From Solirubrobacteraceae bacterium (lineage in GTDB: Bacteria > Actinomycetota > Thermoleophilia > Solirubrobacterales > Solirubrobacteraceae), in assembly GCA_017882455.1 (NCBI GenBank), contig JADGPL010000004.1, positions 62,001-126,000 of the forward strand: a stretch of DNA of 64,000 nucleotides. Reading direction: 5' to 3'. The notes below the pieces were generated by a model. That model worked only from the letters and a program-made list of their open reading frames with translations, was not told the DNA's origin and searched no databases. Made by a program: the position numbers and the translations under genes. The stretch's first letter is position 1; every line of letters begins with the position of its first letter. This document shows positions 58,924 to 63,425 of this stretch, one piece after another.

Positions 58924-59922
58924 ATGAACGGGGCAACGGAGGCATCGAGCGGGCATGGGCGCTCGCTGGCGGGGGTATGGGAGCAGGCCATCGGGCTGCT
59001 CGACGAGGACCTGGGCAGGCGCGACGCGGCACCGCGCACGCGCCGGGCCTACATGACCGATCTGGGTCAGTTCGCCGACTGGGCGGTGGCTCAGGGGCTG
59101 ACACCGCAGGAGGTGGGCCCCAAGGCGGTGCGCCGCTACATCGCCCGCCTCTCTCAGCAGAGCGCCGCGCCGAGCACCTCGGCGCGCAAGCTGGCCGCCC
59201 TGCGGGCCCTCTTCTCCAGCCAACGCGAGCACGGTGAGATCGCCCAGAATCCGGCCGACCTGGTCTCGACGCCGAGGCGGGCGGACCATCTTCCCCGGGT
59301 GCTCACAGCGCGCGAGGCGGCGCGCCTGCTCGATGGCATCCCCAACGGAATGCCCGCCCACCCGCTCGAGGTGCGCGACCGCGCGATGTTCGAGCTCGCC
59401 TACTCGTGTGGCCTGAGGGCAGAGGAGATCGTGTCGCTGAGGACGGCCGACGTGGACCACGACGGCGAGCAGCTGCGAGTGGAGGGCAAGGGACGCAAGA
59501 CGCGCTTCGTGCCTGTGGGCGAGCCGGCGATGGCCGCGGTGCGGCTGTACCTGGAGCGTGCCCGGGGCGCCCTGGCGGCGCCCATGCCCGCCGAGGAGCG
59601 CGCGCCGGGACGGGTCGGGGCAGCGATGCGGGCGGGCGGCTCGTGGGATGCGCTGTTCCTGTCAAAGACAGGTAGACCGCTGGGAACGAGCGACGTCCGC
59701 CGCAGGCTGCGAACGTGGACGGCGAGGATCGGCGTGGCCGAGGGCAGCTCCCCGCACGCGCTGAGGCACAGCTTCGCCACGCACCTCCTGGACGGCGGAG
59801 CGGACCTTCGCAGCATCCAGGAGATGCTCGGGCATGCCAGCGTGTCGAGCACCCAGATTTACACTCGGGTAGAGTCCGCCAGGCTTAGAAGCGCCTATGC
59901 GCGCAGTCACCCTCGGGCCTAG
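58924..59922 (+). CDS. xerC: Tyrosine recombinase XerC/XerD
   Basis: Chromosome dimer resolution recombinase of 332 residues. SAM-like N-terminal DNA-binding domain to about residue 120; catalytic Arg in SCGLRAEEI, Lys in VEGKGRKTRF, the His-x-x-Arg in HALRHSFATHLLDGG, second His in LGHASVSSTQIY with the nucleophile Tyr. The sequence is slightly expanded near residues 215-240 (Ala/Pro/Gly-rich). XerC versus XerD is not decidable from this alone. Overlaps the sigma gene by 26 bp. Confidence 0.9.
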   Translation: MNGATEASSGHGRSLAGVWEQAIGLLDEDLGRRDAAPRTRRAYMTDLGQFADWAVAQGLTPQEVGPKAVRRYIARLSQQSAAPSTSARKLAALRALFSSQREHGEIAQNPADLVSTPRRADHLPRVLTAREAARLLDGIPNGMPAHPLEVRDRAMFELAYSCGLRAEEIVSLRTADVDHDGEQLRVEGKGRKTRFVPVGEPAMAAVRLYLERARGALAAPMPAEERAPGRVGAAMRAGGSWDALFLSKTGRPLGTSDVRRRLRTWTARIGVAEGSSPHALRHSFATHLLDGGADLRSIQEMLGHASVSSTQIYTRVESARLRSAYARSHPRA

Positions 59923-60721
59923 GGGGGATGGAACCCTGGAGACGAACGTCAAACCGATCGAGCTGCGCGAACTGTGGCGGCGCTATAAGAACGACGGCGA
60001 CAGCCGCGTACGCGAGCGGTTGGTCGTCGCCTACTCCCCGCTGGTGAAGTACGTGGCCGGGCGGACGGCCGCGGGCCTGCCTCCCCATGTGGAGGAGGCC
60101 GACCTGATCTCCTATGGCCTCGTGGGGTTGATCTCGGCGATCGAGCGCTTCGACCTCTCTAGGGACATCAAGTTCGAGACCTATGCGATCATGCGCATCA
60201 AGGGTGCGATCATCGACGAGCTGCGCTCCCTGGACTGGGTCCCCCGCAGCGTTCGTGCCCGTGCCCGCGAGGTCGAGCGCGCGAACGCCAAGCTCGAGCA
60301 CACCCTGCAGCGTGCGCCCACCGACGCGGAGATCGCAGCGGAGATGGGAATCTCGATCGAGGAACTCAACGAGTCGCTGCTCGCGATCTCGCACTCCTCG
60401 ATCGTGGCCCTGGATGAGCTGTGGAGCGTGTCGGACTCAAGCGGCGATCAGGTCTCGCTGATGGACACGATCGAGGATCCGGGCGCACCCGATCCCGCCA
60501 GGGCACTGGACCTCGGCGATCTCAAGGACAGGATCGCCGACTCGATCGCGATGCTCCCCGAGCGCGAGAAGCTCGTGATCGCGCTCTACTACTACGAGAA
60601 CCTGACCCTGCGGGAGATCGGTGAGGTGCTCGGGGTGACCGAGTCACGGGTCTCACAGATGCACACCAAGGCCGTCCTGCGCCTGCGCTCGCGCATGCAG
60701 GAGGAGTCCTTCGACGACTGA
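59897..60721 (+). CDS. Sigma factor of the FliA/WhiG type
   Basis: 274 residues. Region 2: VEEADLISYGLVGLISAIERF; region 2.4 area: FETYAIMRIKGAIIDELRSLDWVPRSVR, the hallmark of FliA/WhiG sigma factors; region 3: AEMGISIEELNESL; region 4: LTLREIGEVLGVTESRVSQMHTKAV helix-turn-helix. In flagellate actinobacteria these sigmas run late flagellar genes, in streptomycetes sporulation. Which applies here is unknown. Starts inside xerC (26-bp overlap). Confidence 0.88.
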   Translation: MRAVTLGPRGDGTLETNVKPIELRELWRRYKNDGDSRVRERLVVAYSPLVKYVAGRTAAGLPPHVEEADLISYGLVGLISAIERFDLSRDIKFETYAIMRIKGAIIDELRSLDWVPRSVRARAREVERANAKLEHTLQRAPTDAEIAAEMGISIEELNESLLAISHSSIVALDELWSVSDSSGDQVSLMDTIEDPGAPDPARALDLGDLKDRIADSIAMLPEREKLVIALYYYENLTLREIGEVLGVTESRVSQMHTKAVLRLRSRMQEESFDD

Positions 60722-60762
60722 GCGAAGATTGGGCTCCGCTCGCGCATGCAGGACGACTGAGC
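60686..60762 (+). repeat. Duplicated 3' tail of the sigma gene
   Basis: CGCTCGCGCATGCAGGA at 60686-60702 recurs at 60737-60753, 51 bp downstream; CGACTGAGC then follows both copies (at 60715 and at 60754), the first copy having 12 extra bases between. The repeat includes the sigma stop region, so it is an imperfect local duplication. Confidence 0.75.
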
Positions 60763-60778
60763 TGATACCTGGGCTGTA

Positions 60779-60848
60779 GACCACCGTGCATGCACGGTGG
60801 TCGGCACCGGCGCATGCGCCGGTGCCCGGTGCGCGCATGCGCGCACCG
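60779..60848. repeat. Three abutting perfect palindromes centred on GCATGC
   Basis: 60779-60802 (half GACCACCGTGCA), 60803-60826 (half GGCACCGGCGCA) and 60827-60848 (half CGGTGCGCGCA) are each perfect inverted repeats with no gap between them. All share GCATGC at the centre, spaced 24 and 23 bp. Together 70 bp with no unpaired base. They lie in the 216-bp gap between the sigma gene and the SHOCT gene. They could be a terminator, a binding array or a REP-like element. A hairpin of 10 bp with a 4-base loop is possible for the first two. Confidence 0.9.
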
Positions 60849-60937
60849 AATGGAGGCTGCCGATCTAGGTAGTTCTCCGCTGAGGAATGCGACAGGGCTC
60901 GGATACCGAGGCCGCGGGGGCCGCCTAGCCTCAGACC

Positions 60938-61237
60938 ATGAGGTACGAAGGCCACTTCGATCACATGGACGGCGGAGGCTGGGTGTTTGCGGCTGTCATG
61001 CTCGTGCTTCTAGTCGCCCTGGCTGTGGCGGTGATCATCTGGCTCAACCGCAGCCGCGGCATCGGGGCCACGCCCCAGGCCCCGATCGGTGGCGGGCCGG
61101 TCTCGGCGCGTGATCTGCTCGATCGCCGCCTCGTATCCGGTGAGATCGGCGAGGAGGAGTATCGGCGCCTGCGCGCCACTCTCACCGAGACCGCGACGCC
61201 GGGTGAGCCCGCCGGTCCGCCGCCAACGCCCCTTTGA
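60938..61237 (+). CDS. Small membrane protein with SHOCT domain
   Basis: 99 residues: one membrane helix (WVFAAVMLVLLVALAVAVII) near residues 15-34, Gly/Pro linker, and a C-terminal SHOCT segment (SARDLLDRRLVSGEIGEEEY) at about 55-80. SHOCT domains are short oligomerisation modules. Function unknown. Confidence 0.8.
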   Translation: MRYEGHFDHMDGGGWVFAAVMLVLLVALAVAVIIWLNRSRGIGATPQAPIGGGPVSARDLLDRRLVSGEIGEEEYRRLRATLTETATPGEPAGPPPTPL

Positions 61238-61316
61238 TCGGCGCGGTCCGAACACCCTGGCGCGAGCGTGCGAACGGCGGTATCGTCGTCTGAGAGCTGT
61301 CTAGAGAGGAGATCGC

Positions 61317-63425
61317 ATGCGAGGAATGGGAGACCGCCCACCGGCGGACCGGATTCGCAATGTCGCCCTTGTAGGCCACCGCGGCGCTGGAAAGACCTCG
61401 CTGCACGAGGCGCTGCTGTTCGAGGCCGGGGTGACCGGCCGCCTGGGCTCGGTCCCTGACGCCAGCACGGTCTCGGATTCGGACCCCGACGAGCAGGCAC
61501 GCCAGATGTCGATCTCGGCGACGCTCAGCTCTTTCGCGTGGCGGGATCGCAAGATCAACCTGCTCGACACGCCGGGCGAGCCGAGCTTCGTGGCGGATGC
61601 CCTGGGGGTCCTGCGCGTGTGCGAGTCGGCCGTGTTCGTGGTCAACGCGGTGATGGGGGTGGAGGTCACGACGGCCCGCCTGTGGGCTCGCGCGGCCGAG
61701 CTCGACCTTGCGCGAATGCTGTTCGTGAACATGCTCGACCGCGAGCGCGCGGACTTCTACCGCACGCTGGAGCAGCTCAAGAGCGCGTTCGGACCCCACG
61801 TCGTGGCGACCGAGATACCGATGGGCGTCGAGCAGGAGCTGCAGGGCGTGGTGGACCTGGTGGACATGACGGCCTTCCGTCAAGACTCCGCCGAGCGTGC
61901 GGGCTGGAGCGAGATCCCGATCCCGCAGGAGTGGGCGGAGCGGGCGCAGGAGTACCGCGAGAAGCTGATGGACGAGGTCTGCGAAGTCTCGGATTCGCTG
62001 ATGGAGCGCTACCTGGACGGCGGGGAGATCTCGCACGAGGAGATCGTGAGCGCGCTGAAGGAGGGCACCAACCACGGCAGGATCTTCCCGGTGGTGTGCG
62101 GTTGTGCCACGCGCAACCTCGGCACCTCGCGCCTGCTCGACGCGATCGTCGAGGACCTGCCCTCGCCGGTCAAGCACGGCTCGCTGAGGGTGGGCGAGGT
62201 GGAGCTCGGGCCCAGTGAGGAGCGCGAGCTGTTCGCCTATGTGTTCAAGACCCGCGCCGACCCGTTCGCGGGGCGGATCAACCTGCTGCGCGTCTACCAG
62301 GGCGTCCTGCATGCAGACAGTCAGGTGCTCAACAACCACTCCCACGCGAAGGAGCGGATCGGCCAGCTGCTGCTGTTCAAGGGCAAGGATGTCGAGCACG
62401 TGCAGGAGCTCGGGCCAGGGGACATCGGCGCGGTGGCCAAGCTCAAGGAGACGCGAGCCGGAGACTGGCTGGCCGCGCGCGACGAGCCGATCGAGATGCC
62501 GCGGGTGAAGCTTCCGGCGCCGGTGATGGCCTTCGCGGTGGCGCCGAAGAGCAGGGGCGATGAGGAGAAGGTGCTCGCCTCCCTCCACCGCCTGCAGGAG
62601 GAGGACCCCACGATCGACCTGCACCGCGACCAGCAGACGGGCGAGCAGATCGTGGCCGGGCTCTCCCAGGTCCACGTCGAGGTGATCGTGGACCGCCTGC
62701 GCGAGCGCTTCGGGGTGGAGGTGACGCTGAAGCCACCCCGCGTGCCCTACCAGGAGACGATCCGCCGTCCGGCCGGAGCTCACGGAAGGCACAAGAAGCA
62801 GTCCGGCGGACGCGGCCAGTTCGGCGACTGCCGCATCGAGATAGAGCCGCTCGGGCAGGACGTGCTCAACGACCCGGAGCGGGCGAGCTTCGAGTTCGTC
62901 GATCAGATCAAGGGCGGTGTGATTCCAGGCTCGTTCATCCCGGCTGTCGAGAAAGGGGTGCGCGAGGCGATGCGGGAGGGGGTGCTCGCGGGCTACCCCG
63001 TGCAGGGGGTGCGTGTGCGCCTGATCGACGGCGCCCACCACTCGGTGGACTCCTCCGAGATCGCCTTCAAGCTGGCCGGCGCCCAGGCGATGCGCCAGGC
63101 GCTGCAGGAGGCCGACCCGGTGCTGCTGGAGCCGATCATGCTGGTCAGGCTGTCGGTGCCCGAGAGCCACGTGGGGGACGTGATCGGGGACCTGAGCAGC
63201 CGTCGCGGCCATCCCCTGGGGATGGAGGCGGTGGGCGAGATTACCGAGATCAGGGCCGAGGCGCCGATGGCCGAGATGCTCAGCTACGCGCCCGATCTGC
63301 GCTCGATCACGGCCGGCCAGGGCGACTACACGCTCGAGTTCCTGCGCTATGAGCAGGTGCCTGCGCACCTGTCCGAGAAGCTGCTCGAGCAGGGCGGCGA
63401 TACACGCGCCGCGGCCCACGCGTGA
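61317..63425 (+). CDS. EF-G-like GTPase paralogue (FusA2 type)
   Basis: 702 residues with the EF-G domain order. G1 is GHRGAGKTS (20-28). G3 reads DTPGE (84-88), with Glu replacing the catalytic His of translational GTPases. G4 reads NMLD (138-141), with Met for the usual Lys of NKxD. Domains III-V follow (PYQETIRRPAGAHGRHKKQSG and the segment GGVIPGSFIPAVEKGVREAM). It resembles the actinobacterial second EF-G whose ribosome-dependent GTPase is weak or absent. A strong ribosome binding site AGAGGAG precedes ATG 61317. Confidence 0.88.
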   Translation: MRGMGDRPPADRIRNVALVGHRGAGKTSLHEALLFEAGVTGRLGSVPDASTVSDSDPDEQARQMSISATLSSFAWRDRKINLLDTPGEPSFVADALGVLRVCESAVFVVNAVMGVEVTTARLWARAAELDLARMLFVNMLDRERADFYRTLEQLKSAFGPHVVATEIPMGVEQELQGVVDLVDMTAFRQDSAERAGWSEIPIPQEWAERAQEYREKLMDEVCEVSDSLMERYLDGGEISHEEIVSALKEGTNHGRIFPVVCGCATRNLGTSRLLDAIVEDLPSPVKHGSLRVGEVELGPSEERELFAYVFKTRADPFAGRINLLRVYQGVLHADSQVLNNHSHAKERIGQLLLFKGKDVEHVQELGPGDIGAVAKLKETRAGDWLAARDEPIEMPRVKLPAPVMAFAVAPKSRGDEEKVLASLHRLQEEDPTIDLHRDQQTGEQIVAGLSQVHVEVIVDRLRERFGVEVTLKPPRVPYQETIRRPAGAHGRHKKQSGGRGQFGDCRIEIEPLGQDVLNDPERASFEFVDQIKGGVIPGSFIPAVEKGVREAMREGVLAGYPVQGVRVRLIDGAHHSVDSSEIAFKLAGAQAMRQALQEADPVLLEPIMLVRLSVPESHVGDVIGDLSSRRGHPLGMEAVGEITEIRAEAPMAEMLSYAPDLRSITAGQGDYTLEFLRYEQVPAHLSEKLLEQGGDTRAAAHA

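What the first reader, a model, noticed from the sequence alone, without database searches (positions are those of the whole stretch)
60779..60848. Array of three gapless perfect palindromes centred on GCATGC
Perfect inverted repeats of 24, 24 and 22 bp abut one another exactly, each with GCATGC at its dyad. Chance cannot give three in a row. The arms differ while the centre is constant, which suggests selection for symmetry, for example a cooperative protein array, a stacked terminator, or a new REP-like element.
Basis: seen in the sequence. Interest (0 to 1): 0.75.

Follow-up and report, generated by a model that had tools for sequence, protein, structure and literature searches.

The report
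Dispersed arrays of covarying CATG hairpins
This 70-base stretch is one of 21 copies, in one soil bacterium, of a repeat made of back-to-back perfect palindromes that sits just behind genes; the two halves of each palindrome change together between species, so something keeps the mirror symmetry, and the copies most likely form RNA hairpins that mark the ends of messages.

Summary
Confirmed: three perfect palindromes (24, 24, 22 bp) abut at 60779-60848, each centred on GCATGC. It is not a one-off. This Solirubrobacteraceae MAG has 21 such arrays (at least 61 palindromes), usually three 24-bp units. They occur patchily in 39 of 146 genomes of the family; none was found in other families of the order or class. 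The sigma-to-fusA-like spacer holds an array in four other genomes too, one from another genus. Centres are fixed (GCATGC 272, ACATGT 53 of 333), arms vary, and 293 of 333 palindromes have no mismatch in the inner 11 pairs. In orthologous palindromes, every changed inner pair changed on both sides (34 to 0 in a reduced set); half of these changes cannot pass through G-U. Arrays sit beside stop codons, are enriched between convergent genes, and often carry GCTGTT on one flank. REP membership is not met: no RAYT gene, no GTAG/CGTC tag. Best reading: a lineage-specific REP-like tandem-hairpin element acting at mRNA 3' ends in both directions, with arms kept identical by arm-to-arm copying and/or selection in both strands. 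Function is inferred; no RNA data were available.

The parts
60779..60802 (.). palindrome 1 (24 bp), GACCACCGTGCATGCACGGTGGTC
   Evidence: perfect; MFE -17.7 kcal/mol
60803..60826 (.). palindrome 2 (24 bp), GGCACCGGCGCATGCGCCGGTGCC
   Evidence: perfect; MFE -21.3 kcal/mol
60827..60848 (.). palindrome 3 (22 bp), CGGTGCGCGCATGCGCGCACCG
   Evidence: perfect; MFE -17.1 kcal/mol
60773..60778 (+). GCTGTA, 5 of 6 bases of the GCTGTT flank motif found beside one end of many arrays
   Evidence: CTGTT exact on 23 of 198 flanks against 0.14% in background
59897..60721 (+). sigma factor gene (FliA/WhiG-type by its sequence) upstream; the array begins 57 bp after its stop
   Evidence: ORF; relatives found with it; distance
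60938..61237 (+). small ORF (99 aa) with a weak SHOCT match, sub-threshold (21.2 bits, cut-off 27)
61317..63425 (+). EF-G-like (fusA-like) GTPase gene downstream
   Evidence: ORF; function named from its sequence, not scanned here

Best explanation
The 70-bp stretch is one copy of a dispersed element confined, as far as searched, to Solirubrobacteraceae: two to five (usually three) abutting 22-24 bp perfect palindromes, each a stem of about 10 bp closed by an invariant CATG loop, often with GCTGTT on one flank. SHOWN: dispersal, lineage restriction, fixed centre, covarying arms, concerted change between orthologues, position beside stop codons. INFERRED: in transcripts from either side the array folds into three strong hairpins that end transcription or protect the mRNA 3' end, and because the stems are pure Watson-Crick they work equally on both strands. 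INFERRED: the arms stay identical because a change in one arm is copied into the other (hairpin-templated template switching) and/or because any mismatch is selected against. How new copies arise is unknown; no RAYT is available.
For: Genome-wide family: 30 tandem-GCATGC matches against 3 in the reversed-pattern control; a covariance model finds at least 61 palindromes in 21 loci with a clean gap before noise (palindromes at E below 0.12, next hit E 1.6). Pairing: 96.9% of stem cells paired, covariation score 0.99 against 0.23 shuffled (the input was chosen as palindromic, so this shows arm diversity rather than proof of pairing). Extended set of 333 palindromes (arrays seeded on one perfect palindrome, neighbours admitted even if imperfect): 293 have 0 mismatches in the inner 11 pairs. 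Orthologous palindromes: 40 two-sided, 0 one-sided changes; in a set with redundant comparisons reduced, 34 to 0, of which 17 are transversion pairs. Position: of 92 arrays with genes called on both sides, 28 convergent against 5 of 59 gene pairs in the window; in the 28 convergent cases the nearest stop is at most 14 bp away in 24. Same-site recurrence: sigma-to-fusA-like spacer in 5 genomes, aldehyde-dehydrogenase 3' end in 3, and others. Both strands fold to about -60 kcal/mol. Hairpin clusters beside stop codons, mostly without a U-tract, are reported as intrinsic terminators (PMC8355165), and template switching can create and keep perfect stems (PMC8794818).
Against: No transcript data. 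No U-tract terminator call at the array. Orthologous sites without an array mostly show no unusual hairpin, so those genes do without one. Some arrays lie inside apparent operons (between pheS and pheT) or just upstream of lepA, where a strong terminator would be costly. Absent altogether from some members of the same genus, so the function cannot be essential. Gene calls came from a crude codon-usage finder.
Confidence: 0.5

Rival explanations
1. A selfish, REP-like miniature mobile element whose DNA hairpins serve its own transposition; its place beside stop codons only reflects where insertions do no harm.
For: Patchy within the genus; arms resemble copies in the same genome more than copies in others (nearest-arm distance 1.3 v 2.3, 0.4 v 1.7, 0.6 v 1.5, 1.0 v 1.7); array-free sites in 13 orthologues of one convergent gene pair; a conserved GCTGTT foot beside the terminal hairpin, in a place comparable to the REP GTAG.
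Against: No Y1/RAYT transposase in this genome and in only one array-bearing genus member listed; no target-site duplication signal overall (direct repeats no more than in permuted flanks); copies mostly share single palindromes, not whole arrays; array positions recur across species and even genera.
Confidence: 0.32
2. An array of DNA sites for a dimeric protein or methyltransferase that reads RCATGY.
For: The centre is almost always GCATGC or ACATGT; regular 24-bp spacing; RCATGY is under-represented in the window (46 v 67.9, sd 8.1).
Against: A protein reading only the centre needs no perfect pairing in arms that vary freely; arms change on both sides together.
Confidence: 0.07
3. An RNA element whose self-complementary CAUG loops, or a protein reading them, is the functional part: conserved loop on a variable stem.
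For: Invariant loop with covarying stem is the usual sign of loop recognition.
Against: No Rfam family reaches its gathering score; the rarity of G-U pairs and half of the changes being transversion pairs are odd for selection on one RNA strand; no orientation bias relative to the gene (10 v 7).
Confidence: 0.08
4. Chance or assembly artefact.
For: Most genomes concerned appear to be metagenome-assembled.
Against: Expected count near zero; the same loci recur in separate assemblies with conserved flanks; 34 viral hits to the triple-GCATGC pattern showed no such array.
Confidence: 0.01

Closest known systems
REP elements and BIMEs with RAYT/TnpA-REP (PMC8266576, PMC3733652, PMC2817692)
   Same: 20-50 nt extragenic palindromes, dispersed, clustered, intergenic; a short conserved unpaired motif at one end.
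   Different: No RAYT, no GTAG or CGTC tag, GCTGTT instead; arms vary while the loop is fixed; gapless multimers of different palindromes; tens of copies rather than hundreds.
Untagged REP-like stem-loops of M. tuberculosis, D. radiodurans, Bordetella, Brucella, Cyanobacteria (mentioned in PMC3733652)
   Same: REP-like repeats without the standard tag.
   Different: Not compared by sequence here; a fixed CATG loop with covarying arms in abutting triplets was not found described in the papers searched.
Hairpin-cluster intrinsic terminators (PMC8355165)
   Same: Adjacent hairpins soon after stop codons, usually without a U-tract.
   Different: Those are not a repeat family with a shared loop and unit length; termination is untested here.
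Template-switch-maintained RNA hairpins (PMC8794818)
   Same: Multibase two-sided changes that keep a perfect stem.
   Different: Described there for RNA genes; here it would act on a dispersed bacterial repeat.

Membership tests
REP element (REPtron) | dispersed extragenic palindromes of 20-50 nt | tested here: met
REP element (REPtron) | GTAG (or CGTC) tetranucleotide at the foot of the hairpin | tested here: not met
   flank consensus is GCTGTT
REP element (REPtron) | RAYT/TnpA-REP (Y1_Tnp, PF01797) in the genome | tested here: not met
   no match in G000; among array-bearing genus members listed only G091 has one
REP element (REPtron) | conserved stem sequence among copies in a genome | tested here: not met
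   65 distinct 11-nt half-arms among 73 units in G000
Canonical intrinsic terminator | G+C-rich hairpin followed by a T run | tested here: not met
   0 sites in 60600-61400
Hairpin-cluster terminator | two or more hairpins close together soon after a stop codon | tested here: met
Hairpin-cluster terminator | RNA 3' ends map to the cluster | not testable with these tools
   no transcript data
MITE | target-site duplication flanking copies | tested here: not met
   direct repeats between flanks as in permuted pairs (5.18 v 5.11); one suggestive case read by eye at L033
Known Rfam family | match at gathering score | tested here: not met
   window 60000-62000; best overlapping hit CRISPR-DR20 at 19.8 of 42 bits

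The most novel reading that the evidence does not exclude
A new class of bacterial repeat in which only the hairpin loop is heritable in sequence while the stems drift freely yet stay perfectly self-complementary, because each arm is repeatedly rewritten from the other during replication.
Probability: 0.25. Interest if true: 0.85.

Novelty: new variant of a known kind. Interest (0 to 1): 0.62.

Why it matters
It gives dozens of natural, comparable loci for asking how perfect stems change without passing through a broken intermediate, a question raised for RNA genes (PMC8794818). It also offers a marker and a possible bidirectional 3'-end signal for a little-studied soil lineage, and a REP-like element without the usual transposase.

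Tried and rejected
Phage origin: 34 IMG/VR hits to the triple-GCATGC pattern, none an array of this kind. Wider spread: order, class and phylum searches found no arrays outside the family; the phylum sample gave two lone palindromes. RAYT link: not supported. Target-site duplications: no overall signal. A GTAC-centred counterpart suggested by 19 control-pattern hits in G113: these lie in one ordinary 24-bp tandem repeat. Replacement of ordinary hairpins at array-free sites: one clear hairpin at the L031 locus in G097, elsewhere mostly nothing unusual. Literature searches found no description of the element, but the library holds open-licence papers only.

Full report
WHAT IS THERE. The window holds three abutting perfect palindromes at 60779-60802, 60803-60826 and 60827-60848, each centred on GCATGC. 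Nothing else in the 64 kb comes near them in length, and Markov sequences of the same composition give essentially none. Each folds into a hairpin with a CATG loop, and the whole array folds to about -60 kcal/mol on either strand.

A GENOME-WIDE FAMILY. Searching the window's genome for two GCATGC at the right spacing gave 30 matches against 3 for the reversed pattern. Reading the places showed arrays of perfect palindromes with different arms. A covariance model of one hairpin, built from 48 of these, finds at least 61 palindromes in 21 loci, with a clean gap between E 0.12 and the next hit at E 1.6. Centres are GCATGC or ACATGT almost without exception, the usual spacing is 24 bp, and three units is the commonest number (68 of 103 arrays).

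WHO HAS IT. 39 of 146 genomes of the family match the model, patchily even within the genus. In the order and class, matches outside the family were isolated and not palindromic in the listed sequences. A sample of 396 genomes across the phylum gave the window's own genome and two with a lone palindrome. The nearest named relatives are Solirubrobacteraceae and Solirubrobacterales MAGs.

THE ARMS CHANGE TOGETHER. All ten stem pairs vary and do so on both sides, though that alignment was picked for palindromy. In a set where neighbours were admitted even if imperfect, 293 of 333 have no mismatch in the inner 11 pairs. Orthologous arrays were found by their flanks and compared unit by unit: every changed inner pair had changed on both sides, 40 to 0 over all comparisons with at most four changed pairs, 34 to 0 in a reduced set, with 17 transversion pairs and 17 transition pairs. 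A path through G-U cannot give the transversion pairs. A limit: arrays are found by at least one perfect palindrome, so wholly decayed orthologues would be missed; L023 shows that some decayed units exist.

WHERE THEY SIT. With a crude codon-usage gene finder, 92 arrays have a gene on each side: 28 convergent, 55 codirectional, 9 divergent, against 5, 49 and 5 of 59 gene pairs in the window. In the convergent cases the nearest stop codon is usually within 14 bp. Orientation relative to the gene shows no bias (10 v 7). Neighbours in this genome include lysS, pheS/pheT, dxs, glyA, rpsG, rpsF, ftsZ, lepA and a sigma-70 gene (names from Pfam matches). The array of this window lies 57 bp after a sigma factor gene. 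Four other genomes have an array in the same spacer: L044, L045, L047, and L146 from a different genus; L042, L043, L046, L048 and L119 do not.

GAIN AND LOSS. At one convergent gene pair only this genome has an array and 13 orthologues do not. Beside the aldehyde dehydrogenase gene, three of 13 genomes have one. Array-free sites mostly show no strong hairpin. Direct repeats at the flanks are no commoner than in permuted pairs. Copies in one genome resemble each other more than copies elsewhere, but mostly share single units rather than whole arrays.

HOW IT PROBABLY WORKS. The position, the strand-symmetric folding and the recurrence at the same sites favour a role at mRNA 3' ends; hairpin clusters without a U-tract are reported as terminators (PMC8355165). 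This step is inferred. The strict two-sided change favours arm-to-arm copying by template switching (PMC8794818), or selection that tolerates no mismatch on either strand; the present data do not separate the two.

COMPARISON. It works like a REP in being a dispersed extragenic palindrome with a foot motif, but fails the tag and RAYT tests (REP features from PMC8266576 and PMC3733652), so it is not filed as one.

CAVEATS. Most genomes appear to be MAGs, function was not measured, gene calls are rough, and E-values of the model are approximate.

Noticed in passing
L029 1877-2156: An array lies between pheS and pheT, about 24 bp before the called start of pheT; worth testing for uncoupled expression of the two subunits.
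   Followed up: no
window 1-64000: RCATGY is under-represented: 46 matches against 67.9 (sd 8.1) in shuffles.
   Followed up: no
L023 2000-2050: Two degenerate GCATGC units stand before an intact array, apparent relics of decayed palindromes.
   Followed up: no
L280 3887-3970: A viral contig carries two A+T-rich perfect palindromes centred on GCATGC (AAAAGCATGCTTTT and CTTAAAAGCATGCTTTTAAG).
   Followed up: no
L277 10136-10405: A viral contig has four triple-GCATGC matches at a 72-bp period; no array of palindromes was found there.
   Followed up: no
L316: At the site of the L031 array, G097 has a single long hairpin soon after the stop codon.
   Followed up: partly
G113:C3:459736-460531: A 24-bp tandem repeat with GTAC at each unit; an ordinary minisatellite by its listed sequence.
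   Followed up: yes
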